Below are positions 18,897-61,409 of a stretch of DNA of 64,000 nucleotides, one piece after another. Source of the DNA: Microbulbifer sp. YPW1 (GTDB lineage: Bacteria; Pseudomonadota; Gammaproteobacteria; Pseudomonadales; Cellvibrionaceae). Under the pieces are notes generated by a model. It saw only the letters and a program-made list of their open reading frames with translations, did not search any database and was not told the origin of the DNA. Each line of letters begins with the position of its first letter. Position 1 is the stretch's first letter. The stretch is from contig NZ_CP055157.1 of the NCBI RefSeq assembly GCF_013367775.1, forward strand, positions 1,054,001 to 1,118,000, written 5' to 3'. A program made the position numbers and the translations under genes.

Positions 18897-19000
18897 AGGT
18901 ACTGGGGGCGGGTTTTCAGGACTGCTGTGAATACGTCCCTGTACGCTTCGTCGGCAACATCCCTGTTGCCGACGATCCTGAAAACCCGCCCCCAGCACCT
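18897..19000 (-). repeat. Structured intergenic repeat, copy A1
   Basis: Outer arms 18897-18921 and 18976-19000 are complementary over 25 positions with one mismatch. Read on the minus strand the 54-base core holds a hairpin TCGTCGGCAAC-AGGGAT-GTTGCCGACGA, then AGC, GTAC-AGGGAC-GTA and TTCACAG. It lies between tkt and epd in the direction of their transcription. Confidence 0.85.
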
Positions 19001-19045
19001 GCCCTTCTATTCAAACCACAGAGCTTCGTTAGCCTGGGCCCGTTA

Positions 19046-21046
19046 TTACTTCAGCAGTCCTTCAACCGCTTCCACAACCTTCTCGGCAGTGATGCCGAAG
19101 TGCTTCATCAGATCGCCAGCTGGCGCGGATTCACCGAAGGTTTCCATGCCGATGATGGCGCCATCGAAGCCGACGAACTTGTACCAGTAGTCCTTGTGAC
19201 CGGCTTCCACGGCGACGCGGGCGCGCACGCTGGAAGGCAGCACAGATTCGCGGTAGTCGGCGCTCTGGGTAGAGAAGGCTTCGGCGCAGGGCATGGAAAC
19301 GACGCGTACCTTGCGGCCAGCGAGCTGGTCGGCAGCGGCTACGGCCAGTTCTACTTCAGAGCCGGTGGCGATGATGATCGCTTCCGGTTCGCCGTCGCTA
19401 TCGCGCAGGATGTAACCGCCCTTCTCGATGTTGGCCAGCTGCTCGTCGGTGCGCGCCTGCGGGGCGAGGCCCTGGCGGCTGAAGATGAGGGCGCTGGGGC
19501 CGTCGCTGCGGGATACGGCCATTTTCCAGCTCACCGCGGACTCGGTGGCGTCACAGGGGCGCCAGGTCTGCAGGTTCGGGGTGGAACGCAGTGCGGTGAG
19601 CTGTTCTACCGGCTGGTGGGTGGGGCCGTCTTCGCCGAGGCCGATGGAGTCGTGGGTGTATACAAACACGACCTTCTGCTTCATCAGGGCGGCCATACGC
19701 ACGGCGTTGCGGGCGTATTCCATGAACATCAGGAAGGTGGCGCCATAGGGAACGAAGCCGCCGTGCAGGGCGATGCCGTTCATGATCGCGCTCATGCCGA
19801 ATTCACGTACGCCGTAGTAGACGTAGTTGCCGGAGGCATCGTCGGCGCTCACACCTTTGGCGCCGGACCAGATGGTGAGGTTGGAACCGGCGAGGTCGGC
19901 AGAACCGCCGAGGAATTCTGGCAGCAGCGGGCCGAACGCGTTCAGGGTGTTCTGGCTGGCTTTACGGGAGGCAATCTTGTCGCCGTCAGCCTGGCACTGC
20001 TTGATGTACTCGTCGGCCTTGGCGAGGAAGTCCGCGGGCAGGTCGCCTTTCATGCGGCGTACAAACTCTTCGGCCAGTTCCGGGTGGGCTTCTGTATAGT
20101 CTTCGAAGATGTCGTTCCACTCGTCTTCCTGTTCGCCGCCTTTGGCGCGGCCGTCCCAGGCGTGGTACAGGTCTTCGGGGATGACGAAGGGCTCGTGTTT
20201 CCAGCCCAGGGTTTCACGTACCAGTGCGATCTCTTCGTCGCCCAGCGGTGCGCCGTGACACTCTTCGCGGCCCTGCTTGTTGGGGGAGCCGAAGCCGATC
20301 ACGGTCTTGCAGCAGATAATGGTGGGCTTGCCGGTTTCCGCGCGGGCTTCTTCGATGGCGGCTTTGATGGCGGCGGGATCGTGGCCATCCACGCCCGGAA
20401 TCACGTGCCAGCCGTAGGATTCGAAACGCTTGGGCGTGTCGTCGGTGAACCAGCCTTCTACTTCACCGTCGATGGAAATGCCGTTGTCGTCGTAGAACGC
20501 GATCAGCTTGCCCAGGCCCAGGGTGCCGGCCAGGGAGCAGGCTTCGTGGGAGATGCCTTCCATCAGGCAGCCGTCGCCCAGGAAACAGTAGGTGTGGTGA
20601 TCGACCAGTTCGTAGCCTTCGCGGTTGAACTGGGCCGCCAGCACTTTCTCGGCCAGGGCGAAGCCCACGGCATTGGTGATGCCCTGGCCCAGCGGGCCGG
20701 TGGTGGTTTCAACGCCCGGCGCGTAACCGTACTCCGGGTGGCCCGGGGTTTTGGAATGCAGCTGGCGGAAGTTCTGCAGCTCGTGGATGGACAGGTCGTA
20801 ACCTGTCAGGTGCAGCAGGGAATACAGCAGCATGGAACCGTGGCCGTTGGACAGCACAAAGCGGTCGCGGTCAGCCCACTCGGGGTTGGCCGGGTTGTGC
20901 TTCAGATAGTCGTTCCACAGCACTTCAGCGATATCTGCCATACCCATGGGCGCGCCGGGGTGGCCGCTTTTGGCTTTCTGGACCGCGTCCATGGCTAGTG
21001 CGCGGATGGCGTTGGCCTTTTCTGTGCGAGACGGAGTAGAAGACAT
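19046..21046 (-). CDS. tkt: Transketolase
   Basis: 666 residues from the ATG at 21046, the usual length for bacterial transketolase. The TPP-binding region includes [13 protein letters not shown] and the N-terminal part [19 protein letters not shown]; the pyrimidine-domain part contains [14 protein letters not shown] and [19 protein letters not shown]. It transfers two-carbon units between pentose-phosphate and glycolytic sugars, producing or using erythrose-4-phosphate, the substrate of the epd product downstream. An upstream 55-codon open extension has no family similarity. The gene is divergent from sahR. Confidence 0.96.
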
Positions 21047-21310
21047 AGGGAATTCTCGGTTTGGGGATCTTCGGTTCATCAGATGCGCTGCGGGCCCGGC
21101 TCTGACGGCCAGTTTGCCGCAATTCCACTTCTGCACCGGCACTGGCCGGCGGCAAAACGGGGGGCGTATTTTCCCGTAATACCCCGCCGGGCGCAAAGGC
21201 TGCGAGGGCAATTATCGGGCCGCGGCAGCAACATTTTCCTAATGAATCGCAATATGGGCGCCCTCTGGGGATTTGCCCGCACCTGCATCAAAAAAATTCA
21301 ATGCACCTAA

Positions 21311-21350
21311 ATCAAAATATTTTGATATAGCTCAAAAGCGCTGCTAGACT
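21311..21350 (+). promoter_or_regulatory. sahR promoter with perfect 16-bp palindrome
   Basis: ATCAAAATATTTTGAT at 21311-21326 is a perfect palindrome. A promoter-like TTGATA (21322-21327) overlapping it is followed after 17 bases by TAGACT (21345-21350). This places the expected transcript start at or one base before the ATG at 21358. Probably an autoregulatory operator of the ArsR-type protein. Confidence 0.7.
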
Positions 21351-21357
21351 CCCCGCC

Positions 21358-22338
21358 ATGCTTAATTCCAGTAGTTCCAGCGGCAGTGCCAGCGCCGAGC
21401 GTGAAGCACACGCCAGCGCCCAGATTCCACAGCTGGCGGCGACCCTAAAGGCCGCCGGGGATCCGCTGCGCCTGGAGATTCTGCGCCTGCTGGCCCAGGA
21501 CTCCTACAGCGTGCTGGAGCTGTGTCGCATCTTCGACCTGCGCCAGCCGGCGCTCTCCCACCACCTGAAAGTGCTCGCGCAGGCAGGCCTGGTGAGCAAG
21601 CGCCGCGAGGGCAACAACCTGTTCTACCGCCGCACCGCGGGTAGCGAGCTGCTGCAACAGCTGTTTGCCGGCCTTGACCAGCTGGCGCTCACCGAGGCTC
21701 GTGCGGAAACCGTTGCGCGGATTGCCGCGGAACGCGCGGAGGCCTCGCGCCGCTTTTTCGCGGATTACGGCAATCGCTTCCGCGAGCAGCAGGAGTTGAT
21801 CGCCAGTTATAGCGTCTACGGTCCGCAAGTAGCACAGATGTTGAAACCGGGGCGTCACGCGCTGGAGGTGGGCCCTGGTGAAGGGGAATTTCTCGAGGAA
21901 CTGGCAAGCCGCTTCGGCACGGTGACTGCTCTGGACCTGTCGCAGACGATGCTGGAGCGAGCGCAGGCATTTGCGGATGAGCAGGGCCTGCAGAATATCG
22001 AGTTCGTGTGCGACGACACCCGTGCGGCGGCGTCTCGTCCGGAAAGTTGCGATGCGATTGTGGTGAATATGGTTTTGCACCACACGCCGGAGCCGGCACA
22101 GATTTTTCACGATTTGCAGAAGTCGTTGAAAGTGGGCGGACAGCTGTTGATTACGGAGCTGCACGATCACAAGCAGGACTGGGCTCGGGATGCCTGTGGC
22201 GACCTGTGGCTGGGCTTTGCTCCGCAGCAGTTGATTGAGTGGGCGGCCGAGGCCGGCCTGCAGAAGGGACGCAGTGAACACAGCGCCCTGCGCAACGGGT
22301 TTCAGATTCAAATTCAGGAGTTTGTTAAGGGTTCCTGA
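21358..22338 (+). CDS. sahR: ArsR-family regulator with SAM-methyltransferase-like domain (SahR type)
   Basis: 326 residues. An N-terminal winged helix-turn-helix (about residues 25-100: AAGDPLRLEILRLL, RQPALSHHLKVLAQAGLVSKRREGNNLFY) is fused to a class I methyltransferase fold (about 145-300: ALEVGPGEGEFLEEL, then VTALDLSQTML). This fusion next to metK, ahcY and metF is the arrangement described for SahR, which senses S-adenosylhomocysteine and controls the methionine cycle. No SD sequence precedes the ATG. The next gene is metK in the same direction. Confidence 0.82.
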   Translation: MLNSSSSSGSASAEREAHASAQIPQLAATLKAAGDPLRLEILRLLAQDSYSVLELCRIFDLRQPALSHHLKVLAQAGLVSKRREGNNLFYRRTAGSELLQQLFAGLDQLALTEARAETVARIAAERAEASRRFFADYGNRFREQQELIASYSVYGPQVAQMLKPGRHALEVGPGEGEFLEELASRFGTVTALDLSQTMLERAQAFADEQGLQNIEFVCDDTRAAASRPESCDAIVVNMVLHHTPEPAQIFHDLQKSLKVGGQLLITELHDHKQDWARDACGDLWLGFAPQQLIEWAAEAGLQKGRSEHSALRNGFQIQIQEFVKGS

Positions 22339-22386
22339 GCTTCGTAAGCATAACTAGCGACGAAGTACCGAAATACAAATTGAAGG

Positions 22387-22508
22387 CCAAGGGGCCGGTG
22401 AAAGGTTTCAAAAGCGTCGGCGCCATGGACGGCGCCGACGCAGCGTACAGGGATGTATTCACAGGGGGGCGCCTAGCTCGGTTTTGAAACCTTTCACCGG
22501 CTCCTTGG
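22387..22508 (+). repeat. Structured intergenic repeat, copy A2
   Basis: Arms 22387-22413 and 22482-22508 pair over 27 positions with one mismatch. The core hairpin is GCGTCGGCGCC-ATGGAC-GGCGCCGACGC, differing from other copies by paired changes, followed by AGCGTACAGGGATGTATTCACAG and a short extra segment of about 14 bases. Located between sahR and metK, co-directional with them. Confidence 0.85.
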
Positions 22509-22623
22509 ACGCCCCAAAACAGGAACTGAGCTCCGGGCCAAAAGCTACAAGGCCGAGCAAATTTTATAACCGCCAGCAGCGGAATAAGTCAGGCGCATTA
22601 CTGCGCGAAAGGAGAAACTCACA

Positions 22624-23844
<1,221 letters not shown>

Positions 23845-23852
23845 TTTGAACA

Positions 23853-23871
23853 GGCGGGCCACAAGCCCGCC
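23853..23871 (+). other. Hairpin in the metK-ahcY spacer
   Basis: GGCGGGC and GCCCGCC pair around CACAA. No T run follows, so it is unlikely to be a strong terminator; mRNA stabilisation or attenuation is possible. Confidence 0.6.
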
Positions 23872-23916
23872 CACAACGCTCGGCACAACCAGAGCGACAA
23901 CTCAGAGAATTAGGTA

Positions 23917-25302
23917 ATGAACCAGATGAGCACTGAATTTAAAGACTTCAAAGTAGCCGACATCTCCCTCGCCGATTGGGGCCGCATGGAAATTGAAATT
24001 GCGGAAGGCGAAATGCCCGCGCTGATTACCCTGCGGGAAAAATACCGCGCGGAACAGCCGCTGGCCGGCGCCCGCATCATGGGCTGTATCCACATGACCA
24101 TCCAGACCGCGGTACTGATCGAAACCCTGGTTGCCCTGGGTGCGGAAGTACGCTGGTCCTCTTGTAACATTTTCTCTACCCAGGACCACGCTGCGGCAGC
24201 CATCGCAGCGTCCGGTATCCCGGTATTTGCCTGGAAAGGCGAAACCGAGGAAGAGTACGAGTGGTGTCTCGAACGCACCATCGGTGCCGATGTTGCCGGC
24301 TGGCAGCCCAACATGATCCTGGACGACGGCGGCGACCTTACCGAACTGCTGCACCGCAAGTACCCGGAGCTGCTGGACAAGTGTCACGGTATTTCCGAGG
24401 AAACCACCACCGGTGTGCACCGTCTGCAGGACATGCTGAAAGCGGGTACGCTCAAGGTTCCGGCAATCAACGTGAACGACTCCGTCACCAAGAGCAAAAA
24501 CGACAACAAGTACGGCTGTCGCCACAGCCTGAACGATGCCATCAAGCGCGGTACCGACCACCTGCTGTCTGGCAAGAAAGCGCTGGTGATTGGTTACGGC
24601 GACGTGGGTAAAGGCTCCGCGGCTTCCCTGCGTCAGGAAGGCATGATCGTTAAGGTAACCGAGGTAGACCCCATCTGCGCCATGCAGGCCTGTATGGACG
24701 GCTACGAACTGGTATCTCCTTATATCAACGGCATAAACGATGGCAGCGAGTCCTGCATCAACAAGGAACTGCTGGCGAACACCGACCTGATCGTGACCAC
24801 CACCGGTAACGTCAACGTGTGCGATGCGAATATGCTGAAAGCACTCAAGTCCGGCGCCGTGGTTTCCAATATCGGCCACTTCGACAATGAGATCGATACC
24901 GCTTTCATGCGTAAAAACTGGGAGTGGCAGGAAGTAAAACCGCAGGTGCACAAGATCGTGCGCAACGCGGAAACCAACGATCACCTGCTGCTGCTTTCCG
25001 AAGGCCGCCTGGTGAACCTGGGCAACGCCACCGGCCACCCCAGCCGCATCATGGACGGCTCCTTCGCCAACCAGGTGCTGGCACAGATCCACCTTTACAA
25101 CGAAAAGTTTGCCGACCTGCCGGCGGACCAGAAGGTTTCTGCGTTGTACGTAAAAGTACTGCCCAAGCACCTGGACGAGGAAGTGGCGAAGTACATGGTG
25201 GAAGGTTTTGGCGGTGTGATTACCCGCATGACCGAAGACCAGGCCAAGTACATCGGCGTTTCCGTTGACGGCCCTTACAAGCCGGAAAGCTACAAGTATT
25301 AA
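23917..25302 (+). CDS. ahcY: S-adenosylhomocysteine hydrolase
   Basis: 461 residues, the usual long bacterial form. NAD-binding segment [17 protein letters not shown], substrate and catalytic regions [17 protein letters not shown] and [19 protein letters not shown], and the conserved end [11 protein letters not shown] (family ends in YRY/YKY). It splits SAH into homocysteine and adenosine, relieving product inhibition of methyltransferases. Positioned between metK and metF, under probable SahR control. Confidence 0.97.
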
Positions 25303-25309
25303 AGACCTC

Positions 25310-25347
25310 CACACTGGGATCCCGGGCCAGTTCCGGGATCCTGTGTG
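25310..25347 (+). other. Strong hairpin in the ahcY-metF spacer
   Basis: CACACTGGGATCCCGG pairs with CCGGGATCCTGTGTG (one bulge) around a seven-base loop. A GTG that would extend metF upstream lies inside the stem, which supports the downstream ATG as the real start. No T run follows. Confidence 0.65.
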
Positions 25348-25368
25348 CCGAGGGAATGGAATAGAACA

Positions 25369-26208
25369 ATGAGCAAGTTACGTATCAGTTTTGAATTTTT
25401 CCCGCCGAAAACCGAAGAGGGTCGGGACAAACTGTATAACACCCGCGAACAGCTGCAGGGATTCAACCCCGAATTTTTCTCGGTCACCTACGGCGCCGGC
25501 GGCACCACCCGCGACACCACCGCAAATATCGTCACCAGTCTGCGCAAGGATGGCATTTCCATCGCACCGCACCTGTCCTTCGGCGGCGACAACGAAGAGA
25601 TCGTGCTGGGCCTGCTAGAGCGCTACAAGGAAGCCGGCGTGGATCGTATTGTCGCCCTGCGCGGCGATATGCCCTCGGGCATGGGTTCGGTGGCACAACT
25701 GGTGTACGCCAATGAGCTGGTGGCTTTCATCCGCCGTCATACCGGCGATCACTTCCATCTGGAAGTGGCGGCCTATCCGGAAATTCACCCGGAAGCGGAA
25801 AGCTACGACGACGACATCCGTTTCCTGAAGGGCAAGTTCGAGGCCGGCGCCAACAGCGCACTGACCCAGTACTTCTACAACCCGGATGCCTACTTCTACT
25901 TCCTCGACCAGTGCGAGAAAGCCGGTATCGACGCCCCCATCTACCCGGGCATCATGCCGATCACCAATTTCACCAACCTCGCGCGCTTCTCGCGCAACTG
26001 CGGAGCGGAAATCCCGCGCTGGCTGAAATACCGCATGGAGAGCTTCCGCGATCCGGAAGACGTGAAGAAGCTCGGACTGGAAATTGTTACCGACCTGTGT
26101 GAAACCCTGCTGGAAGGCGGCGCGCCCGGCCTGCATTTTTACACCATGAATCAGGTGGGACCGACCGCGGATATATTGAAAGCGCTGGATCTTAATATCG
26201 CCCAGTAA
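25369..26208 (+). CDS. metF: Methylenetetrahydrofolate reductase
   Basis: 279 residues from the ATG at 25369, beginning MSKLRISFEFFPPKTEEG, the normal MetF start. Contains FFSVTYGAGGTTRD, the FAD-binding barrel segments and GGAPGLHFYTMN near the end. It reduces methylene-THF to methyl-THF, the methyl donor for homocysteine remethylation, completing the methionine-cycle set with metK and ahcY. A GTG start eight codons upstream lies in a hairpin and is less likely. Confidence 0.95.
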   Translation: MSKLRISFEFFPPKTEEGRDKLYNTREQLQGFNPEFFSVTYGAGGTTRDTTANIVTSLRKDGISIAPHLSFGGDNEEIVLGLLERYKEAGVDRIVALRGDMPSGMGSVAQLVYANELVAFIRRHTGDHFHLEVAAYPEIHPEAESYDDDIRFLKGKFEAGANSALTQYFYNPDAYFYFLDQCEKAGIDAPIYPGIMPITNFTNLARFSRNCGAEIPRWLKYRMESFRDPEDVKKLGLEIVTDLCETLLEGGAPGLHFYTMNQVGPTADILKALDLNIAQ

Positions 26209-26251
26209 GCCTAATCACACAGAATAGAGCTATGTGCTAAGAAGCGCAGAT

Positions 26252-26365
26252 GGCGATGCCGGGGATCGCTTTGTGAGACCTTCTAAAACAGGGATGTTTT
26301 AGAAGAGCCCCCAGGGATGGGTTCACGGCGTGTCTCACAAAGCGATCCCCGGCAGCGACATCGCC
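26252..26365 (+). repeat. Structured intergenic repeat, copy B1
   Basis: Arms 26258-26279 and 26332-26353 pair perfectly over 22 positions, with partial extension outward. The core reads CTTCTAAAAC-AGGGAT-GTTTTAGAAG, AGC, CCCC-AGGGAT-GGG, TTCACGG: the same order as the A copies with different stems. It follows metF and precedes a convergent gene. Confidence 0.82.
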
Positions 26366-26385
26366 ACCGGCCTACGCCCAGCAGA

Positions 26386-27006
26386 CTATTTTTTCGGGCC
26401 ATCCATCCACACATTGATCGGCTTGCCCTCAAAATCGATCACGCGCACCACCAGACGCCGATTCTGCTCCCTACCCCGCTGGGTATCATTGTCGGCAACC
26501 GGATCGGAATCCCCCAGGCCTGCCGCCTCGACCCGCTCCTCATCGATACCGCGCTCCAGTAAAAACTGCCTTACCCAATTCGCTCGCCACTGCGACAGCT
26601 TGCGGTTTTTCTTGGGGTCGCCAGCGTTGTCCGTGTGCCCTTCCACCACGATTTTAAGTTTGGGAAAGTCGCGCATAATCACTAGCAGTGCTTCCACGTC
26701 TCCAAGGGTGTCCATTCTCGGCGCAAAACCACCGGGCTCGAAATCCACATCCAGCACGAAGGTATCGCCCGCCTCCCGCGTCTGCCCCATCAGGTAGCGC
26801 ACCATGTCATCGCCAAACGGCGCCGCGGTGCGTGCAGACTGTTCACCAAGGCCATTGCTGACCAGATCGCGAGGATCGAGGGTGTATTTCTTCGTCGGGT
26901 CCGGACAGCCGCTCAGTAGCAGCGAGGGAATCAGTATCAGAAACGACGCCCAGCGCGGATGTTGACGGGCGATCGACTTACAGGTGGCGCTAAGGGGTGC
27001 AGGCAT
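26386..27006 (-). CDS. OmpA-family lipoprotein
   Basis: 206 residues. A long N-region precedes a lipobox (LLLSGC, Cys at about residue 34). The C-terminal two-thirds is an OmpA-like peptidoglycan-binding domain, with VVEGHTDNAGDPKKNRKLSQWRA-type motif from about residue 118 and ENRRL-like EQNRRLVVRV near 185. Probably an outer-membrane lipoprotein tethering to peptidoglycan. Convergent with metF. Confidence 0.83.
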   Translation of the reverse strand: MPAPLSATCKSIARQHPRWASFLILIPSLLLSGCPDPTKKYTLDPRDLVSNGLGEQSARTAAPFGDDMVRYLMGQTREAGDTFVLDVDFEPGGFAPRMDTLGDVEALLVIMRDFPKLKIVVEGHTDNAGDPKKNRKLSQWRANWVRQFLLERGIDEERVEAAGLGDSDPVADNDTQRGREQNRRLVVRVIDFEGKPINVWMDGPKK

Positions 27007-27250
27007 AGGGCCAGCTCCTCTTGGTTTCTCAGGGGTTCATCTGTTCAATTATCGATTTCACAAGTCCGACGCATTCTAGGATCGCCCCCTGTCAATCCGT
27101 AACTTTCCAGGGCCTGAATAAACCGGCACTTTCCCGGGGCATTAGTCGCGGCTGGTAATTTCTGAGATGATCACAGGCACGTTATACCTTTACGATACTT
27201 TTACGAATGCCCGACTATTTTGAATGGCTCGGATCGCCAGGGAGACCGCG

Positions 27251-28003: not shown

Positions 28004-28018
28004 AAATCATTTCCTAAT

Positions 28019-28678: not shown

Positions 28679-28699
28679 CAAACTACCTTACTGCAAAAC

Positions 28700-29062
28700 T
28701 CAGGTGGCGGATATCAACAATACCCCGATCAACACACCCACCGCTCCGGCTACCCGCACCAGGTTTTCATTGCCGTGCACCACACCCAGCACAAACTCCC
28801 GTGTGCGCTCGTAACCCGCCTGCAACGCATAGGCGCCGACCACTACCAGCAGAATCCCCAGCACATTGAACAGCGTGCCCCAGCTGCGGGTATCGGAAAT
28901 CAGCAGGAATATCATGCCGATCACAATGCGTGCCCAGGCCGCGAAATAGAACAACTGCGGATTCATACGCTCACTGATATCGCGCGCGATCTGCGGCTTG
29001 AGAATAATCAGCACAGACATCGCAGTAATCGCGACACCGATTAACCAGACTATGGCTTTCAT
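28700..29062 (-). CDS. Small integral membrane protein, unknown function
   Basis: 120 residues from the ATG at 29062, which has GGAG six bases upstream. Four hydrophobic segments (about 2-22, 38-55, 61-82 and 98-118) with a charged loop in between. I recognise no family. It lies between rsmE and the HAD gene on the same strand with gaps of about 20 bases. Confidence 0.65.
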   Translation of the reverse strand: MKAIVWLIGVAITAMSVLIILKPQIARDISERMNPQLFYFAAWARIVIGMIFLLISDTRSWGTLFNVLGILLVVVGAYALQAGYERTREFVLGVVHGNENLVRVAGAVGVLIGVLLISAT

Positions 29063-29083
29063 TTTTGCTCCTTGCAAAAAGCT

Positions 29084-50685: not shown

Positions 50686-50736
50686 AATGTACAACCTGAT
50701 AAGCACTTTACCCGAGCAGGCGAAGAGCACACAAGT

Positions 50737-51474: not shown

Positions 51475-51515
51475 AACAACTCCGAGCGCTACGAAGTACA
51501 GAAATTTGAATTGAA

Positions 51516-51627
51516 GGCGGAGCGCCGGGTAGAGGTTTTCAGGATCGTCGGCAACAGGGAAGTTGCCGACGAAGCGTACAGGGATGTATTCACAGTGGTC
51601 CTGAAAACCTCTACCCGGCGCTCCGCC
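51516..51627 (+). repeat. Structured intergenic repeat, copy A3
   Basis: Arms 51516-51544 and 51599-51627 are a perfect 29-bp inverted repeat. Core: TCGTCGGCAAC-AGGGAA-GTTGCCGACGA, then AGC, GTAC-AGGGAT-GTA, TTCACAG. Located between hutC and hutU in their direction. About 25 bases before it resemble the same flank of copies A2 and A4 (GAAAT, AATTGAAGG), and CTCCGGGCCAAAA after it is shared with A2. Confidence 0.88.
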
Positions 51628-51713
51628 GCAGCAAAACCCGTTTTAAGACTCCGGGCCAAAAACCCACAGAACGTAATTTCAAACCAAGAATTTGGAAAAA
51701 AGACGAGGCAACC

Positions 51714-53387: not shown

Positions 53388-53403
53388 TTCAACGCTTTAA
53401 ATT

Positions 53404-53426
53404 CGCCATGCCCTCGCGGCATGGCG
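53404..53426 (+). other. Hairpin in the hutU-hutH spacer
   Basis: CGCCATGCC pairs with GGCATGGCG around CTCGC. An in-frame start of hutH at 53421 lies inside the stem; the downstream ATG is preferred. Confidence 0.6.
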
Positions 53427-53456
53427 TATGTAAAAAATAGTTTCGGTGAAAAAATT

Positions 53457-55007
53457 ATGTACCAACTGGAAATCACCCCGGGGCAACTGAGCCTGGAACA
53501 ACTGCGCCGCGTCGCCCGCGAGCCGGTAAAACTGAGCCTGAACAAAGACGCCCATGCGGCCATCAATGCGTCGGCCAAAACCGTCGCCGATGTACTGGAA
53601 CAGGGCCGCACCGTATACGGTATTAACACCGGCTTCGGCCTGCTGGCAAACACCAGCATCAAGAAGGAAGATCTGGAAACCCTGCAGCGCGCCATCGTCC
53701 TGTCCCATGCGGCCGGCACCGGCAACTTCATGAGTGAAGACACCGTACGCCTGTTGATGGTGCTGAAGATCAACTCCCTGGCCCGCGGTTTTTCCGGCAT
53801 CCGCCTGGAAGTGATCGAAGCGCTGATCAAACTGGTCAACGCGGGTGTGTATCCCGCGATTCCGGAAAAAGGCTCCGTGGGCGCCTCCGGCGACCTGGCA
53901 CCGCTCGCGCATATGAGCGTGGTACTGCTGGGCGAAGGCGAATGCTTTATCAACGGCGAACGCAAGCCCGCGTCTGAAGGCCTGCGCTTTGCGGAAATGC
54001 GCCCGGTAGTACTGGCACCGAAGGAAGGCCTCGCGCTGCTGAACGGCACCCAGGCCTCCACCGCTTTTGCCCTGCAGGGCCTCTTCTCTGCGGAAGACAT
54101 GTTCGCCGGTGCGGTAGTAACCGGCGCGCTGACCCTGGAAGCGGCCAAGGGCTCACGCCGTCCGTTCGACGACCGTATCCACATGGTGCGCGGCCAGCAG
54201 GCGCAGCGCGATGTGGCCGCGAGCTACCGCGACCTGCTGGGTGAACAGAGTGAAATTGGCGCATCCCACGAGGACTGCGAAAAGGTACAGGACCCCTACT
54301 CCCTGCGCTGCCAGCCCCAGGTGATGGGCGCCTGCCTGCAGCAGATCCGCTTCGCCGCCGAAATCCTGCTGGCGGAAGCCAACGGTGTTTCCGATAACCC
54401 GCTGGTGTTTACCGATGTGGAAAACCCGGAAAACTCCGACATCATCTCCGGTGGTAACTTCCACGCGGAACCGGTGGCGATGGTGGCCGATAACCTGGCC
54501 TTGGCGATTGCGGAAATCGGCTCCCTGTCCGAGCGCCGCATGGCGCTGCTGATCGACTCCAACCTGTCCGGCCTACCGCCCTTCCTGGTGGACAACGGCG
54601 GGGTGAACTCCGGCTTTATGATCGCGCAGGTGACCTCTGCGGCACTGGCCAGCGAGAACAAGACCTTCGCCCACCCGGCGAGCGTCGACTCCCTGCCCAC
54701 CTCTGCGAACCAGGAAGACCACGTCTCAATGGCCACCTTCGCCGGTCGCCGCCTGCGCGACATGGCGGACAACACCTGTGGCATTCTCGCGGTGGAACTG
54801 CTGGCCGCCTGCCAGGGTCTGGACTTCCGCGCGCCGCTAAAGACCACCGAAAAGTTGGAAAACGCCAAGGCCGCCCTGCGCGAGCGCGTCTCCTTCTACG
54901 ACAAGGACCGCTACTTCGCACCGGATATCGAGGAAGCCAAGCAACTCCTGGCCAGTGCTTACTACCGTGAGTACCTGGCGGTAGAAATGCTGCCCAGCAA
55001 TCAGTAA
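53457..55007 (+). CDS. hutH: Histidine ammonia-lyase
   Basis: 516 residues from the ATG at 53457 (GGTGA upstream). The Ala143-Ser144-Gly145 tripeptide in [12 protein letters not shown] forms the MIO cofactor; also YGINTGFG and [16 protein letters not shown]. It deaminates histidine to urocanate, the first hut step. Last gene of the hutC-hutU-hutH group; a long hairpin follows the stop. Confidence 0.97.
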
Positions 55008-55016
55008 ATCCCCGAT

Positions 55017-55064
55017 GAACCGCCTTCGCTCAGCCCGTTGAATACGCTGGGCGAAGGTGGGTTC
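55017..55064 (+). other. Long hairpin after hutH
   Basis: GAACCGCCTTCGCTCAGC pairs imperfectly with GCTGGGCGAAGGTGGGTTC around an 11-base loop. No T run; may end or protect the hut transcript. Confidence 0.6.
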
Positions 55065-55084
55065 AACAGCTATCCCCCCACCAA

Positions 55085-55387
55085 TTAGCTTTCGGCTTTT
55101 ACCATTTTCTGCGCGGAAGCAGCGCCGTACTTTTCTGCCAGCCTCCCACTCATCTTCCCGGTGGAGGCCCACACCAGCAGCGCCACCCAGGCAATCCACG
55201 AGAGCCCCGCTGGCACATTGGCGAGAAAAATTTTTCCTAGATGCGCGCGATTGAAAAAAACCGCAATCACACTAGGCAAAAACCACACGGCAAAAAAGAA
55301 TACAACGAAAATGACGGCCTGAAGCGTATCCATTTGTGCAAACAGATCGAGGAAACCCGAAAATTTTTCTTCAAGATTTGACAGCAT
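55085..55387 (-). CDS. Superinfection-immunity-family membrane protein
   Basis: 100 residues from the ATG at 55387 (AAGGA upstream; an ATG at 55405 lacks one). Two strong hydrophobic segments, about 28-44 and 58-78, with LPSVIAVFFNRAHLGKIFLANVPAG, SWIAWVALLVW in between: the pattern of the Imm_superinfect family, named after phage T4 Imm. Bacterial relatives are mostly of unknown role; no phage genes are nearby. Confidence 0.7.
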   Translation of the reverse strand: MLSNLEEKFSGFLDLFAQMDTLQAVIFVVFFFAVWFLPSVIAVFFNRAHLGKIFLANVPAGLSWIAWVALLVWASTGKMSGRLAEKYGAASAQKMVKAES

Positions 55388-55467
55388 AATAAGAATTCCT
55401 TCCATTGATTTGATTTTTCATTGAATATTCGATCGACACTTCTGTAGTACCGGCGAAATCCAATTTC

Positions 55468-56112
55468 TTACAATTTATTCTTCGTCGTTTCGAAATTTTC
55501 TTGCTGCCACGTATCGATCTGTATCTCGCTCTTTTTTATGCGACGCGAATACCACACGCTCCAGATGCCCAAGCCTACTGTAAATGTGAGAAGCCATCCG
55601 ATGACAAACCCGATGTCTTTCGTAAAGATGGGCTCCAGCCATCCGAAATATGACACCCCCTGCCAGACTGCAAAAATACCCAGTTCCACAATCAACAGAA
55701 TCCAGGTAAAGCGCAGCATGCGTCGTTTGCGCTCGAGTCTCAGCCGCGCAAGGTCCAGATAGCCACGGGTGGACTCCTCCAGTGGATCCCACACTCCCCG
55801 GCGATTGGATACGGAAAATGCCATGGCCCAGGTCAGCAATACCAGTACCAACAGCGCGCGCCAGGGAGCATCTCGCATCTCGCTGGCCAATGTCAGGTAA
55901 ACACCGCCGATGCCCACCGCAATTGAACCGGCCCATTCGAGCAGGGCAGTCATACGTATACGTCGTTCTTGTCGCCGGATATTTTCGCGGATGGCATTAG
56001 GCACCGGCATCTCGCAAGGGGCCTGCTGCCAGATATTCGCCAGCTCCTGTAGCCCGTCGTCACCGTGGCGGCCCACTTTGGACTTACCGTTATTTTCGTT
56101 GCTCATGCTCAT
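55468..56112 (-). CDS. Membrane protein paired with an ECF sigma factor, putative anti-sigma
   Basis: 214 residues. An N-terminal cytosolic part (about 1-50) is followed by four hydrophobic segments (about 58-76, 84-100, 135-155, 165-190). Its ATG overlaps the sigma-factor stop by one base, so they are translated together. No recognisable zinc anti-sigma motif is visible. The role as an anti-sigma or signal partner is inferred from position only. Confidence 0.6.
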   Translation of the reverse strand: MSMSNENNGKSKVGRHGDDGLQELANIWQQAPCEMPVPNAIRENIRRQERRIRMTALLEWAGSIAVGIGGVYLTLASEMRDAPWRALLVLVLLTWAMAFSVSNRRGVWDPLEESTRGYLDLARLRLERKRRMLRFTWILLIVELGIFAVWQGVSYFGWLEPIFTKDIGFVIGWLLTFTVGLGIWSVWYSRRIKKSEIQIDTWQQENFETTKNKL

Positions 56113-56609
56113 CACACCGCATTACCCAGTTTTGTGTTCAAGCGCTCGCGGGCGCGATTCAGGCGCACCGCGACATTGGACTCACTGATACCCAGCACTT
56201 CGGAAATTTCGCTGTAACTCAGGCCCTCGAAACGCAATGTAAGTACCTGACGCATTCCCAGGGGCAGCAGGGACACTGCGCGCACCAGCCGCTCGGCATC
56301 CCGGTTTTGCTGCAGCTGCGCTTCCGGGCCAGGACGTTCATCCTGCAGCTCTTCCAGTAGCTCACTGCCATGGCTATCTCGCCGGCGGGCGAGCTGGGTG
56401 ACACTGCGGTTGTGGGCGATCCGGTAGACAAAGGTACGCAGCCTCGACTCCCCCCGGAACGCCGGCAATGCCCGCCAGATGGCCAGCCATATTTCCTGCA
56501 CCAGGTCTTCCCGCTCCGCCCGGTTGCGCACGTAGCTGCTAGCCAGACGCGCAATGCCACCACCGCAGTCCTCGATTAACTGGTTAAAGATCTGTTCGCG
56601 CGCGTCCAA
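56112..56609 (-). CDS. ECF-type RNA polymerase sigma factor
   Basis: 165 residues from a TTG at 56609 with GAAGAG upstream; the frame is open from a TTG at 56678, so the start is uncertain. Region 2 (DLVQEIWLAIWRALPAFRGESRLRTFVYRIAHNRSV) and region 4 (LPLGMRQVLTLRFEGLSYSEISEVLGISESNVAVRLNRAR) are complete. It would direct RNA polymerase to a small regulon in response to a signal, probably controlled by the next gene. Confidence 0.88.
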   Translation of the reverse strand: MDAREQIFNQLIEDCGGGIARLASSYVRNRAEREDLVQEIWLAIWRALPAFRGESRLRTFVYRIAHNRSVTQLARRRDSHGSELLEELQDERPGPEAQLQQNRDAERLVRAVSLLPLGMRQVLTLRFEGLSYSEISEVLGISESNVAVRLNRARERLNTKLGNAV

Positions 56610-56772
56610 GCTATGCTCTTCTGTCCGTATTCTGGGGCCGCAGGAAGCGGGTAATGCCTGGTACTGTACCCAGCGCAATCAGAACCTTACATAAATTTTC
56701 TCCCCGCCCGCCCCGCCATCTTCCCAGACACCCGGAACTGGCAACACCCCTTCGGTCACGATTTGGCCCAGA

Positions 56773-56807
56773 TTGACGTTTACGTTAACGTAAACGTCAA
56801 CTAGACT
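56773..56807 (+). promoter_or_regulatory. liu promoter with 28-bp perfect palindrome (LiuR operator)
   Basis: Positions 56773-56800 are a perfect palindrome, half-site TTGACGTTTACG, centre TTAA. A -35-like TTTACG (56779-56784) inside it is 17 bases from TAGACT (56802-56807). The site fits the known LiuR half-site and MerR-type activation. It lies 48 bases before the liuR ATG. Confidence 0.82.
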
Positions 56808-56848
56808 TCGGGCAGATCTGAGGACTATCCCATGAGCGCCCGTGCCTA

Positions 56849-57238
56849 ATGAGCAATATCGCCGACAGCTACAGCATTTCCGAGCTGGCCCAGGAATTCG
56901 GGATCACCACCCGGACTATCCGCTTCTATGAAGACAAGGGGCTGATCAGCCCGGAACGGCGGGGGCAGACCCGGGTGTACACGCCGGAAGACCGGGTGCG
57001 CCTGAAGCTAATCCTGCGGGGCAAGCGTCTGGGTTTCTCGCTGGATGAGAGCCGGGAAATCATCGATATGTACGACCCGGCCCACGGCAATGTGGACCAG
57101 CTCAATCGCCTCCTCGACCGAATCGATGCCAAGCGCCAGCAGCTGCGACAGCAGCAGCGGGACATCGAGAAGATGCTCGCCCAGCTGGACGATGCGACCG
57201 CCCGCACACAGGCGGCGCTGAAAGAACAAACAGACTGA
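56849..57238 (+). CDS. liuR: MerR-family regulator of leucine degradation
   Basis: 129 residues. MerR DNA-binding domain: SISELAQEFGITTRTIRFYEDKGLISPERRGQTRVY. The rest is a coiled dimerisation helix (IDAKRQQLRQQQRDIEKML). The liu operon begins 51 bases downstream, so LiuR is the likely call, governing branched-chain catabolism. A five-codon frame (MSARA, 56832-56849) ends overlapping its ATG. Confidence 0.88.
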   Translation: MSNIADSYSISELAQEFGITTRTIRFYEDKGLISPERRGQTRVYTPEDRVRLKLILRGKRLGFSLDESREIIDMYDPAHGNVDQLNRLLDRIDAKRQQLRQQQRDIEKMLAQLDDATARTQAALKEQTD

Positions 57239-57289
57239 ACCAAACCTGATTTCACAAATAACTCTGACGGATCCAAAGCGGAGCACGCG

Positions 57290-58459
57290 ATGAATACTCC
57301 ATACCCAACCCTCAATTTCGACCTCGGCGAAGACATCGATATGCTGCGGGACATGGTCTACAAGTTCTGCCAGGCGGAACTGGCCCCGCGGGCGGCACAG
57401 ATCGACGAGGACAACCTTTTTCCCGCCGATATGTGGAAGAAGTTCGGTGAGCTGGGCCTGCTGGGTATGACCGTGGAAGAGGAGTACGGTGGTTCCAATA
57501 TGGGTTACCTGGCCCACGCGGTGGCGATGGAGGAGATTTCCCGCGCGTCCGCATCGGTCGGCCTCTCCTATGGCGCCCATTCCAACCTGTGTGTAAACCA
57601 GATCCGCAAAAACGGTACCCCTGAGCAGAAGGCGAAGTATCTGCCTAAGCTGTGTTCCGGCGAGCATATCGGCGCGCTGGCGATGAGTGAGCCCAATTCC
57701 GGCTCCGATGTAGTGAGCCTGCAGCTGAAAGCGGAGAAGAAGGGCGATCGCTTTATCCTGAACGGCAACAAGATGTGGATCACCAACGGCCCGGATGCGC
57801 ACACCTATGTGATCTATGCGCGCACCGAGCCGGGTATCAGCTCTGGCGGTATTACGGCGTTTATTGTGGAGCGCGGTTTCAAGGGTTTCTCTCAGGCGCA
57901 GAAGCTGGACAAGCTGGGTATGCGCGGTTCCAACACCTGTGAGCTGGTGTTCGAGGACTGCGAGGTGCCGGAAGAGAATATTCTGGGCCAGCTGAACGGC
58001 GGCGTGCGCGTGCTGATGAGCGGTCTGGATTACGAGCGCACCATTCTTTCCGGTGGCCCGGTAGGTATCATGCAGGCGTGCATGGATATCGTGGTGCCTT
58101 ATATTCACGATCGCAAACAGTTTGGCAAGGCGATCGGCGAGTTTCAGCTGATGCAGGGCAAGGTTGCGGATATGTACGCGGATCTGAATGCGAGCCGCGC
58201 ATACCTGTACTCGGTGGCGAAAGCCTGTGATCGCGGTGAGGACTCCCGTAAGGATTCCGCGGCGGTGATTCTGTTTACCGCAGAGCGTGCCACCCAGATG
58301 GCACTGCAGGCGATCCAGACCCTGGGCGGCAACGGCTATATCAATGAGTACGCCACTGGCCGCCTGCTGCGCGATGCCAAGCTGTACGAAATCGGCGCGG
58401 GTACTTCCGAGATCCGTCGTATGCTGATTGGTCGCGAGCTGTTTAACGAGACTCGCTAA
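57290..58459 (+). CDS. liuA: Isovaleryl-CoA dehydrogenase
   Basis: 389 residues. Acyl-CoA dehydrogenase fold; the catalytic Glu is at the isovaleryl-CoA-type position in [13 protein letters not shown] (about residue 249), while the position used by medium-chain enzymes is Gly/Ala ([12 protein letters not shown]). FAD and substrate motifs [13 protein letters not shown] and MWITNGPDA are present. It oxidises isovaleryl-CoA to 3-methylcrotonyl-CoA. CGGAG lies upstream of the ATG. Confidence 0.95.
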
Positions 58460-58485
58460 GCTTCGTAGATAGTTTCGGGGCGGCA

Positions 58486-58588
58486 CTGCTACCGGGATGG
58501 GTTCGCTGGACACGCCGTGAACCCATCCATGGGGGCTCTACAAAAACATCCTGTTTTTGAAGGTCCAGCGAACCCATCCCAGTAGCAG
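58486..58588 (-). repeat. Structured intergenic repeat, copy B2
   Basis: Arms 58486-58511 and 58563-58588 pair over 26 positions with one mismatch. On the minus strand the core reads CTTCAAAAAC-AGGAT-GTTTTTGTAG, AGC, CCCC-ATGGAT-GGG, TTCACGG. It lies between liuA and liuB, opposite to transcription. Confidence 0.85.
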
Positions 58589-58634
58589 CGCCTGCGCATT
58601 TTATTTCTGTGCTCTAACCAACCAAATTTTTTCT

Positions 58635-60242
58635 ATGAACCAGATTCAGAGCAAAATTAACTCCCGAGATCCAGCGTTTGCGGAAAACCGCGAGCAGATG
58701 GAGAAGATTGTCGATGACCTGCGGGAAAAGCTGGAAACCATCGCCAAAGGCGGCAGCGAGCGCGCGCGGGAGAAACACGTGTCCCGTGGCAAGTTACTGC
58801 CGCGAGACCGCATCGATGCGCTGCTCGATCCGGGCAGTCCGTTCCTGGAATTCTCCCAGCTGGCCGCTTACGACGTTTACGGCGAGGACGTGCCGGCGGC
58901 GGGGATTCTCACCGGCATCGGCACCGTTGCCGGCCAGCCCTGTGTGATTGTTGCCAATGATGCGACAGTGAAAGGTGGTACCTACTACCCGCTAACCGTG
59001 AAAAAGCACCTGCGCGCGCAGGCGATCGCGGAGCAGAACAATTTGCCGTGTATCTACCTGGTGGATTCCGGCGGTGCCAACCTGCCACGCCAGGATGATG
59101 TCTTCCCGGATCGCGAGCATTTCGGTCGCATATTCTTCAACCAGGCCAACCTGTCCGCAAAGAATATTCCGCAGATCGCGGTAGTGATGGGTAGCTGTAC
59201 CGCCGGCGGTGCCTATGTGCCGGCGATGGCGGATGAGTCCATTATGGTGAAGGAGCAGGCGACGATTTTCCTCGCGGGGCCTCCACTGGTAAAAGCGGCC
59301 ACCGGGGAAGAGGTTTCGGCGGAGGAGCTCGGCGGCGCGGAAGTGCACTGCAAGACGTCCGGTGTTTCCGACCACTTTGCGAATAACGATACCCATGCGC
59401 TGGAGTTGGCACGCAAGTCCGTTGCGCGCCTGAATCGGATCAAGAACCCGGGCCTGGATATCCAGAAGCCGGTCGAGCCGATTTATCCACCCGAAGAAAT
59501 CTACGGCATTGTGCCCAAAGATTCCCGCCAGCCGTTTGATGTACGTGAGATTATCGCGCGGGTGGTGGACGGTTCCGAGTTTGATGAATTCAAGGCGATG
59601 TACGGCACCACCCTGGTGACCGGCTTTGCCCGCATTCACGGTTACCCGGTGGGCATCGTAGCCAACAATGGCATCCTGTTTGCCGAGAGTGCACAGAAAG
59701 GTGCGCACTTCATCGAGCTGTGCGCACAGCGCAATATTCCGCTGGTATTCCTGCAAAACATCACCGGTTTTATGGTGGGTAAACAGTACGAAGCCGGCGG
59801 TATCGCCAAGCACGGTGCGAAAATGGTAACCGCGGTCGCCACCGCAAAAGTACCCAAGTTCACCGTCCTGATCGGCGGTTCCTTCGGTGCCGGCAACTAC
59901 GGTATGTGCGGACGCGCCTACGATCCCAACTTCCTGTTTATGTGGCCGAATGCGCGCATTTCCGTGATGGGCGGCGAACAGGCGGCCGGGGTGCTGGCGC
60001 AGGTGAAGAAAGACCAGATGGCGGCACAGGGCGAGGACTGGAGCGAGGAAGAGATCGCCAAGTTCAAGCAACCGATCATCGACGACTACGAACACCAGGG
60101 CCACCCCTACTACGCCTCTGCGCGCTTGTGGGACGACGGTGTGATCGATCCGAAAGATACCCGCACCGTGCTGGGACTGTGTCTGGCAGCGGCCACTCAC
60201 AAAGAACCAGAGGAAACGAAGTTCGGGGTCTTTCGAATGTAG
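58635..60242 (+). CDS. liuB: 3-methylcrotonyl-CoA carboxylase, carboxyltransferase (beta) subunit
   Basis: 535 residues from the ATG at 58635; the longer frame starts in repeat B2. Carboxyltransferase motifs: [41 protein letters not shown], and [24 protein letters not shown]. With liuD it carboxylates 3-methylcrotonyl-CoA. No clear SD sequence is visible. Confidence 0.95.
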
Positions 60243-60269
60243 ATCTGAGTATTGGGATAGTTTGGTGCG

Positions 60270-60381
60270 GGTCCTGCTGCCGGTATTGGCTTGCTGGACA
60301 CGCCGTGAACCCATCCCTGGGGGCTCTGCAAAAACATCCATGTTTTTGAAGGTCCAGCAAGCCAATACCGGCATCAGAACC
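60270..60381 (-). repeat. Structured intergenic repeat, copy B3
   Basis: Arms 60270-60299 and 60352-60381 pair over 30 positions with two mismatches. On the minus strand: CTTCAAAAAC-ATGGAT-GTTTTTGCAG, AGC, CCCC-AGGGAT-GGG, TTCACGG. Between liuB and liuC, opposite to transcription. Shares the flank AAACTATC with B2. Confidence 0.86.
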
Positions 60382-60421
60382 TTACCGACTCCGTAGCTAT
60401 TGCCAATTTCAAGGAATCACC

Positions 60422-61219
60422 ATGACCGAAAAAATGCTGTGCGAAATCGACAACGAAGGCGTTGCCACGGTTACCCTAAACCGCCCGGAAATTCACAATG
60501 CCTTCGACGACGACCTGATTCGCCAGCTCGGCGAAACCTTCGACAACCTCGCTCGCAGCGGAGGCATCCGTGCGCTGATACTCGCTTCAAATGGCAAAAA
60601 CTTTTCCGCCGGCGCCGACCTGAACTGGATGAAGCGCATGGCCGAGTACAGCGAAGAGCAAAACCGCCAGGACGCCGCCGCCCTCGCCGCTATGCTGCAC
60701 AAACTCGACCAGTTCCCCGCGCCTACTATCGCCCGCGTACAGGGTGCGGCTTTCGGTGGTGCGGTGGGCCTGGTGAGCTGCTGCGATATCGCTATCGCCT
60801 CCCAGCGCGCCAGCTTCTGCCTGAGCGAAGTGAAAATCGGCCTGCTGCCGGCCACCATCAGCCCTTACGTGATCAACGCCATCGGCACTCGCCAGGCGCG
60901 CCGCTACTTTGTCACCGCCGAGCGATTCTCCGCGGAACGGGCTCAAGAAATCGGCCTGGTGTCGGAAGTCGTTCACGAAGGCGAGCTGGATTTAACAGTA
61001 CAGACACTGGTGAACAGCATTACCGACAATGGCCCCAACGCGGTGACCATGGCCAAGCAACTGGCCATGTCCATGTCCAACCGTGTGATCAATGAAGAAC
61101 TGCAGGGGCAAACCAGTGCGTTGATTGCGGCGGTCCGGGTTTCACCAGAGGGACAGGAAGGGTTGAGTGCGTTTCTGGAAAAGCGCGCACCCAGTTGGAT
61201 GAATAGCGGGGACGAATAA
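60422..61219 (+). CDS. liuC: Methylglutaconyl-CoA hydratase (enoyl-CoA hydratase family)
   Basis: 265 residues. Crotonase signatures: FSAGADLNWMKRMAEYS, ARVQGAAFGGAVGLVSCCDIAIAS and FCLSEVKIGLLPATISPYV. In the liu operon it hydrates 3-methylglutaconyl-CoA to HMG-CoA. AAGGA precedes the ATG. Confidence 0.92.
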   Translation: MTEKMLCEIDNEGVATVTLNRPEIHNAFDDDLIRQLGETFDNLARSGGIRALILASNGKNFSAGADLNWMKRMAEYSEEQNRQDAAALAAMLHKLDQFPAPTIARVQGAAFGGAVGLVSCCDIAIASQRASFCLSEVKIGLLPATISPYVINAIGTRQARRYFVTAERFSAERAQEIGLVSEVVHEGELDLTVQTLVNSITDNGPNAVTMAKQLAMSMSNRVINEELQGQTSALIAAVRVSPEGQEGLSAFLEKRAPSWMNSGDE

Positions 61220-61297
61220 TTCCGGAAGGTGGGCACACTTTGCTCATCCTACAAGGTTACAACCTACCGCTTACGAAGAGCCGAAATGTAAATTGAA

Positions 61298-61409
61298 GGC
61301 CGGGCGCCGGGTGTGGACTTTCAGGATCGTCGGCAACAGGGATGTTGCCGACGAAGCGTACAGGGATGTATTCACAGCGGTCCTGAAAGTCCACACTCGG
61401 TGACCGGGC
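61298..61409 (+). repeat. Structured intergenic repeat, copy A4
   Basis: Arms about 61298-61326 and 61381-61409 pair with a few mismatches in the outer part. Core: TCGTCGGCAAC-AGGGAT-GTTGCCGACGA, AGC, GTAC-AGGGAT-GTA, TTCACAG. Between liuC and liuD in the direction of transcription. Confidence 0.86.

What the first reader, a model, noticed from the sequence alone, without database searches (positions are those of the whole stretch)
18897..61409. Family A: four structured intergenic repeats with compensatory stem changes
Copies at 18897-19000 (minus), 22387-22508, 51516-51627 and 61298-61409 share an order: variable self-complementary outer arm of 25-29 bp, inner 11-bp hairpin with an AGGGAT-like loop, AGC, a three-pair hairpin again looping on AGGGAT or AGGGAC, TTCACAG, outer arm. 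The inner stem is CGTCGGCAAC/GTTGCCGACG in three copies and CGTCGGCGCC/GGCGCCGACG in A2: both sides changed together. The outer arms differ almost wholly between copies (A3 29/29 paired). Paired variation means selection on, or copying by, secondary structure. Flanks are partly conserved too (GAAAT..AATTGAAGG before; CTCCGGGCCAAAA after A2 and A3), so the unit may reach about 170 bases.
Basis: seen in the sequence. Interest (0 to 1): 0.82.

Follow-up and report, generated by a model that had tools for sequence, protein, structure and literature searches.

The report
Mobile repeats with paired GGA hairpins
Over a hundred short repeats scattered through a marine bacterium's genome fold into the same shape, two small hairpins that look like a landing site for the regulator protein CsrA held in a longer stem, and related repeats occur in other gammaproteobacteria, which suggests that mobile DNA may be spreading binding sites for a global regulator.

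Summary
The window holds seven copies, not four; the genome at least 112 places, a few degenerate. Covariation is very strong: 33 of 42 pairs have two-sided changes, 98.0% of cells are paired. It also holds at 11 orthologous sites, where 473 of 615 changed pairs are pair-keeping double changes.

The core is two hairpin loops reading A-N-G-G-A, 22-24 nt apart in 88 of 97 and 71 of 91 copies measured. GGA loops occur on one strand only (200 of 228; other strand 0 of 227). This is the published CsrA/RsmA signature (PMC7652899, passages). The closest named family is TwoAYGGAY (RF01731), proposed to bind CsrA (PMC4333381, passages); own copies miss its cut-off, but one model joins both.

The elements are mobile DNA: empty sites among relatives; in one methanotroph genome, inverted ends with target duplications (19 of 21 units; swapped control 1 of 420).

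CsrA binding and transcription are inferred. Against a simple 3'-UTR role: orientation to flanking genes is unbiased (36 sense, 31 antisense).

The parts
18889..19006 (-). copy A1 (A type), between a transketolase-like gene (named by eye) and an erythrose-4-phosphate/glyceraldehyde-3-phosphate dehydrogenase gene, sense to both
   Evidence: R1 131.6 bits, R2 68.2 bits; genes; site occupied in 6 of 15 genomes compared, own included
22383..22514 (+). copy A2 (A type with the 14-nt insert), between a methyltransferase/ArsR-like gene (named by eye) and metK, sense to both
   Evidence: R1 112.4 bits; best own match to RF01731, 37.3 bits; site occupied in 5 of 15 genomes; metK named
26247..26366 (+). 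copy B1 (B type), between metF and an oppositely oriented OmpA-like gene; not in the finding
   Evidence: R2 98.0 bits, R1 84.2 bits; genes
51514..51631 (+). copy A3 (A type), between hutC and hutU, sense to both
   Evidence: R1 135.3 bits; genes
51545..51572 (+). A3 hairpin 1: 11-bp stem, loop AGGGAA at 51556-51561
   Evidence: sequence; loop columns
51577..51588 (+). A3 hairpin 2: TAC-AGGGAT-GTA; GTACAGGGATGT at 51576-51587 is an exact fit to the CsrA SELEX consensus RUACARGGAUGU
   Evidence: sequence; consensus from PMC7652899 (passages)
51516..51544 (+). A3 outer arm, 5' half (partner about 51597-51627)
58478..58594 (-). copy B2 (B type), antisense to both neighbours, between an acyl-CoA dehydrogenase-like gene and a carboxyltransferase-like gene; not in the finding
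   Evidence: R2 90.3 bits, R1 83.9 bits; genes
60266..60383 (-). copy B3 (B type), antisense to both neighbours, between the carboxyltransferase-like gene and an enoyl-CoA hydratase-like gene; not in the finding
   Evidence: R2 97.5 bits, R1 85.5 bits; genes
61296..61413 (+). copy A4 (A type), sense, between the enoyl-CoA hydratase-like gene and a biotin carboxylase-like gene
   Evidence: R1 130.2 bits; genes

Best explanation
Each element is a non-autonomous mobile repeat whose conserved payload is a structured RNA with two GGA-loop hairpins at a fixed spacing, clamped by a long self-complementary outer stem. SHOWN: the fold is kept by compensatory change, one strand's fold is the kept one, both loops hold ANGGA, the spacing is near constant, and the DNA has moved in the past. 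INFERRED: wherever a copy is transcribed on its own strand, each pair of hairpins binds one dimer of CsrA/RsmA, one loop per RNA-binding surface. Together the copies form a dispersed set of CsrA sites, acting as decoys and/or as local landing sites in untranslated RNA. The outer stem keeps the two hairpins together and protects them; its sequence is largely free, so mainly pairing is kept.
For: Covariation in 41 copies and at 11 orthologous sites. Loop columns: A 41/41, N variable, G 40/41, G 41/41, A 41/41; second loop A 41, N (G31 T10), G 41, G 41, A 40 of 41 (Fisher p 4e-7 each; the second loop lies in the stretch used to collect the rows). In copies fetched by a pattern that fixes only hairpin 2, hairpin 1 has GGA in its loop in 96 of 112 found, 121 examined; without the own genus 84 of 99, 108 examined. 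GGA kept in 68 of 68 loops of 34 orthologous copies while 29% of paired columns changed. Spacing 22-24 nt in 88 of 97 and 71 of 91 copies in which both GGA loops were found, inside the 10-63 nt over which CsrA bridges two sites (PMC7652899, passages). The exact SELEX 12-mer occurs 18 times in 330,687 bp of fetched own DNA, all 18 inside copies (18 of 111 copies). TwoAYGGAY, joined to this family by model R2, was independently proposed to bind CsrA (PMC4333381, passages). csrA is found in 35 of 40 genomes of the genus. Mobility.
Against: No RNA or binding data. Copies antisense to both neighbours are as common (31 against 36, p 0.63) and keep two GGA loops as well (26 of 31 against 29 of 36) as sense copies, so transcription from the upstream gene cannot be what maintains them. 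No promoter was looked for or shown. Hairpin 1 has an 11-bp stem, whereas most SELEX ligands had four or fewer contiguous pairs (PMC7652899). Several genomes with many csrA genes have few copies (G003 12 and 1, G010 19 and 5; but G006 9 and 48), not tested for phylogeny. csrA could not be seen in the own genome: the syntenic match ends at a block edge, probably a withheld stretch.
Confidence: 0.55

Rival explanations
1. The fold acts as single-stranded DNA: a recombinase or transposase recognises the paired hairpins with GGA loops when the strand is exposed, as TnpA-REP does for REP elements, and the structure is kept because only foldable copies spread.
For: Unbiased orientation to genes; 16 of 16 close pairs are inverted; presence/absence at orthologous sites; G-T pairs are tolerated in DNA as well.
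Against: Y1 transposases (PF01797, E up to 0.001) are absent from G012 and G021, which hold 50 and 49 matches. In the methanotroph genome the copies have terminal inverted repeats and target duplications, the mark of an ordinary double-strand transposase that does not need the inner fold. The loop rule ANGGA and the spacing fit those known for CsrA.
Confidence: 0.2
2. The repeat works as an RNA hairpin at mRNA ends or between cistrons (barrier to exonucleases, RNase III site or terminator replacement) and works in both orientations because the outer stem is symmetrical.
For: Placement near gene 3' ends (67 of 91 at 20-60 bp from a facing stop codon), only 5 of 96 in divergent spacers; the empty sites of the 1516579 locus hold, by eye, a short GC-rich inverted repeat at the same spot; antisense copies sit inside what looks like an operon (B2, B3).
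Against: Does not explain the ANGGA loops, their spacing, or why unpaired core columns change less (12%) than paired ones (29%). By eye no run of T follows the stem in the window copies; no terminator scan was run.
Confidence: 0.13
3. A selfish repeat without host function; gene conversion among the copies keeps loops and arms alike, and the ANGGA loops are only inherited from a founder.
For: Inner modules (GGCGAC or GCAAAC types) differ between sites in the same relative and between relatives at the same site, which looks like conversion; near-identical copies in G248 and G104.
Against: Conversion within a genome cannot keep ANGGA across some 50 genera whose arms and inner stems differ. N in ANGGA varies while its neighbours do not.
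Confidence: 0.1

Closest known systems
TwoAYGGAY RNA (Rfam RF01731, clan CL00106)
   Same: Two hairpins with an AYGGAY-like loop side by side, enclosed by a poorly conserved external stem; listed from human gut, Gammaproteobacteria and Clostridiales (PMC2864571, one table row seen); proposed as CsrA-binding (PMC4333381, passages); its two hairpins differ in stability (PMC11661157, passages). Six loci over its cut-off in 5 of 38 genomes are also found by model R2 at the same places.
   Different: Own copies stay below the cut-off (best 37.3 of 43; 0 of 31 genus genomes over it). Loops here are mostly AGGGAY. Here it is a dispersed repeat of at least 112 places; no passage or listing that I saw describes TwoAYGGAY as mobile or high-copy (searches; 5 of 7 papers with the name were listed, 4 opened for passages).
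CsrB/CsrC and RsmX/Y/Z regulatory RNAs
   Same: GGA in hairpin loops, paired sites for CsrA dimers.
   Different: Those are RNAs with many sites per molecule (PMC7652899, passages), each from its own locus with promoter and terminator (recalled); here two sites per unit, many units, no shown promoter.
REP/BIME elements and RAYT transposases
   Same: High-copy palindromes outside genes, near gene 3' ends, inverted dimers.
   Different: About 118-132 nt with two inner hairpins instead of 20-40 bp; no unpaired GTAG or CGTC tag seen (definition from PMC3733652, passages); no dependence on Y1 transposases.
MITEs
   Different: The inside is a conserved structured module shared by genera whose ends differ. 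In the own genome target duplications are not shown.

Membership tests
TwoAYGGAY RF01731 | Two adjacent hairpins with AYGGAY-like apical loops | tested here: met
   ANGGA in both loops; the second position is G, not Y, in 31 of 41 rows in each loop
TwoAYGGAY RF01731 | Enclosing external stem of low sequence conservation | tested here: met
TwoAYGGAY RF01731 | Score at or above the curated gathering threshold (43 bits) | tested here: not met
   best own copy 37.3 bits (window A2), 0 of 31 genus genomes over it; 6 loci in 5 of 38 genomes holding R2 matches are over it (38 of the 56 R2-positive genomes were given). So the own copies are not filed as RF01731 members
CsrA/RsmA-binding RNA | GGA in a hairpin loop, ANGGA, two sites at bridging distance | tested here: met
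   rule from PMC7652899
CsrA/RsmA-binding RNA | Binding to CsrA | not testable with these tools
   needs gel shift or CLIP
CsrB/RsmZ-type sRNA | Own promoter and terminator, free RNA | not tested
   no RNA data; no promoter or terminator analysis was done
REP (GTAG/CGTC) | 20-40 bp palindrome with unpaired GTAG or CGTC tag | tested here: not met
   sizes and sequences, by eye
REP (GTAG/CGTC) | Presence of RAYT/Y1 transposase | tested here: not met
   G012 and G021 have 50 and 49 matches and no PF01797 match; the own genome has three PF01797 matches
MITE | Terminal inverted repeats and target-site duplication | tested here: inconclusive
   met in G248 (19 of 21 units); in the own genome 27 of 104 against 45 of 309 controls have an 8/9 or better direct repeat, p 0.011, at no fixed place

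The most novel reading that the evidence does not exclude
Mobile DNA repeats across Gammaproteobacteria carry and multiply a CsrA-dimer binding RNA, so that copy number and position of a transposable element set the capacity and wiring of a global post-transcriptional regulator. The RNA module outlives its vehicles: in different lineages it sits within unrelated mobile ends, and it is kept even in copies that are antisense to their neighbours.
Probability: 0.3. Interest if true: 0.87.

Novelty: new variant of a known kind. Interest (0 to 1): 0.73.

Why it matters
If the copies bind CsrA, a marine bacterium would hold some 200 CsrA sites outside its known targets, and related repeats occur in about 50 of the 218 genera of the class sampled, where (recalled) only a few CsrB-type RNAs per genome are known. 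That would change how CsrA titration is modelled and would be a case in bacteria of a transposable element distributing binding sites for a global regulator. It also gives a scarcely explored Rfam family a much larger alignment and a testable function.

Tried and rejected
Rfam on the whole window found nothing at gathering level; weak matches to miRNA models and Ysr224 look like hairpin noise. RAYT dependence was tested and dropped. Absence of csrA in the own genome, first seen, was dropped as evidence: the region runs into an unreadable block and a relative's csrA is itself cut by N. Target duplications in the own genome: inconclusive. Replication-strand bias: 44 plus and 36 minus in one half, 13 and 14 in the other (the origin was assumed, not shown), so no signal. 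A first count of orthologous changes paired some copies wrongly and included a non-orthologous one (B3, opposite orientation in G020); it is replaced. A first script for the target duplications of the eight G248 copies cut six units short and is replaced. An autonomous partner of the G248 repeat was looked for in a few stretches (only the first 100 of 251 end matches were listed) and not found.

Selection effects: A1 was collected by similarity to A2 and to the stretch around hairpin 2. Alignment A2 was collected by a pattern that fixes GGATG in hairpin 2 and then filtered for GGA in hairpin 1, spacing 22-25 and an outer stem of 20 or more pairs (86 of 121 passed a slightly wider filter), so the 29 of 31 covarying pairs and its loop columns are inflated; the unfiltered figures are those. 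Alignment A3 is fitted to model R1, so leans towards the structure. Dropped rows before A1: L024 (degenerate 3' arm), L031:450-576 (ran off the locus; one search failed for it), and L034, L039, L042 (duplicates of window copies). One search left out 5 of 126 pattern matches too near a locus end.
Full report
What is there. The four copies named in the finding are correct. A covariance model R1 built from 41 copies of the genome (A1) and a second model R2 built from 58 rows of pattern-selected loci, five of them from the own genus, and 4 window copies (A2) both find seven copies in the window: 18889-19006(-), 22383-22514(+), 26247-26366(+), 51514-51631(+), 58478-58594(-), 60266-60383(-) and 61296-61413(+) (rows used to build a model match it by construction). 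The three added ones are of a B type with other inner stems. In the whole genome R1 gave 142 matches at E up to 0.01, which are 111 distinct places once the antisense shadows of the palindrome are merged; a few are partial or degenerate. The copy at 58478 was not among them, because only 150 of 2300 candidates were scored, so 112 is a lower bound.

Structure. In A1 the count over a named structure of 42 pairs gives 98.0% of cells paired, 33 pairs with a change on both sides and 320 such cells (81 in shuffles), covariation score 0.555 (0.184 in shuffles, 0.05-0.12 when slid). Mismatches are lopsided: 75 G-T against 7 A-C cells, 27 against 6 without the two conserved wobble columns (p 2e-15 and 3e-4). 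So the fold of this strand, not of its complement, is kept. That holds for RNA and for single-stranded DNA.

Loops. In A1 the first loop reads A (41 of 41), N (G31, T3, C2, A1, absent 4), G (40), G (41), A (41); the second A (41), N (G31, T10), G (41), G (41), A (40). By MFE folding of all 111 places, 200 of 228 hairpin loops with a stem of 3 or more contain GGA, and 0 of 227 on the other strand. Two GGA 20-27 nt apart exist in 106 of 111 places. The distance between the two loop GGAs is 22-24 nt in 88 of 97 pattern-selected copies and 71 of 91 own copies in which both could be measured. According to a review, the CsrA SELEX consensus is RUACARGGAUGU, most ligands had GGA in a hairpin loop, mostly of six nt closed by AC/GU, and CsrA bridges sites 10 to 63 nt apart (PMC7652899, passages). 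GTACAGGGATGT of the A type is an exact fit; the exact 12-mer is found 18 times in 330,687 fetched bases, always inside copies, in 18 of 111 copies.

Evolution at fixed sites. At 11 sites with 34 orthologous copies (2-7 each), 615 of 2132 paired columns differ in pairwise comparison; 473 of these are double changes that keep the pair, 75 single changes that keep it, 67 broken. Of unpaired core columns 166 of 1382 differ. All 68 loops keep GGA (pairwise counts are not independent, and the alignment is fitted to R1). One of these sites, 1516579, is antisense to both flanking genes; it is occupied in 7 and empty in 5 of 12 genomes. The tkt-gap spacer is occupied in 6 of 15 and the spacer before metK in 5 of 15. 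Inner modules differ between sites in one relative and between relatives at one site, which points to gene conversion or replacement; how the arms stay so well paired, with few one-sided intermediates, is not settled.

Setting in the genome. With a simple gene caller of my own, 96 of 111 places do not overlap a called gene: 36 are sense to both neighbours, 31 antisense to both, 24 between convergent genes, 5 between divergent genes. Of the 91 with a facing gene end, 67 lie 20-60 bp from that stop codon, median 41. Sense and antisense copies keep two GGA loops alike (29 of 36, 26 of 31). Sixteen pairs closer than 400 bp exist among 107 places scoring 60 bits or more, all inverted. In the window, B2, B3 and A4 fill three successive junctions of what looks like an operon for leucine or isovalerate degradation (genes; the pathway is my reading), two antisense and one sense.

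Spread. With R2, 56 of 281 genomes and 50 of 218 genera of the class match at E up to 1e-6, own included, with at most 15 candidates scored per genome; 225 of 281 did not match. Named records with a pattern match include Stenotrophomonas, Xanthomonas, Microbulbifer, Marinobacter, Rheinheimera, Shewanella, Alteromonas, Sedimenticola and Methylotuvimicrobium. In this set, chosen only for hairpin 2, hairpin 1 has GGA in its loop in 96 of 112 found (121 examined), and the outer arms pair over 12 bp or more in 107 of 121, against 40 of 121 with swapped arms. Without the 12 loci of the own genus: 84 of 99 found, 108 examined, and 94 of 108. The filtered alignment A2 has double changes in 29 of 31 pairs; it was filtered for long outer stems and GGA loops, so that figure is inflated.

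Mobility. In G248, eight near-identical copies and 13 further units end in GCAATTCCCA and TGGGAATTGC, two of the eight with a base or two changed in one end. Direct repeats of 7 bp or more flank 19 of the 21, of 9 bp or more 16; with flanks swapped between units 1 and 0 of 420. The end motif occurs 251 times in that genome, its reversed control never. Some units have a further module inserted in the loop of hairpin 1. In the own genome no fixed duplication could be shown.

What it is called. Rfam gives nothing at gathering level in the window. RF01731, TwoAYGGAY, scores up to 42.5 bits in the genus against a threshold of 43, 0 of 31 genomes over it. In 38 genomes with R2 matches (of the 56; own included), 5 have loci over it, and R2 finds all six of these loci at the same places and strands with E up to 3e-11, E-values of this model being rough. 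So the two look like parts of one superfamily. TwoAYGGAY was proposed to be a CsrA-binding RNA by motif match (PMC4333381, passages); its two hairpins differ in stability (PMC11661157, passages), as here (11 bp against 3 bp). Nothing in the listings or passages that I saw describes the family as mobile or high-copy; the library holds open-licence papers only.

How it most likely works. Shown: structure, strand, loop rule, spacing, past mobility. Inferred: binding of one CsrA dimer per unit, and an effect on free CsrA or on the host mRNA. The strongest objection is that antisense copies are kept equally well. This asks for transcription from within or across the element, for conversion from transcribed copies, or for a role of the single strand as DNA.

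Noticed in passing
window 22383-22514 and L009, L010, L011, L031: 5 of 41 rows of A1 carry an extra GGGGGCGCCTAGCY between TTCACAG and the 3' arm; it is present or absent among orthologous copies, so it comes and goes as a unit.
   Followed up: partly
L093, genome C1:336808-336979: An extended copy with further GGA hairpins inside one outer stem, a possible step towards a CsrB-like layout.
   Followed up: no
genome-wide, for example C1:213724/213908, 432137/432323, 1190046/1190247: Sixteen close pairs of copies, all inverted (13 minus-plus, 3 plus-minus), 14 of them 55-94 bp apart.
   Followed up: partly
genome C1, 2.75-4.58 Mb: Few copies in this part (12 of 107 counted); may be biology or withheld stretches.
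   Followed up: no
G003, G010, G042, G006, G009, G049, G014, G004: Genomes of the genus with 5-19 csrA-like matches; of those searched with R1, G003, G004, G009, G010 and G014 have 0-11 copies and G006 has 48.
   Followed up: no
L172, L173 (tkt-gap spacer of G001 and G019): In place of the element there is another long palindrome, TGTAGGAGCCTGCTTGCAGGC..., like a REP.
   Followed up: no
L358-L370 (G248): Units with a nested module CAGATTTTTGCTCC...GCCATCCTTGGCG inserted in the loop of hairpin 1, up to several in a row.
   Followed up: partly
window 57290-63451: Three successive intercistronic gaps of one probable operon each hold a copy, two antisense and one sense.
   Followed up: partly
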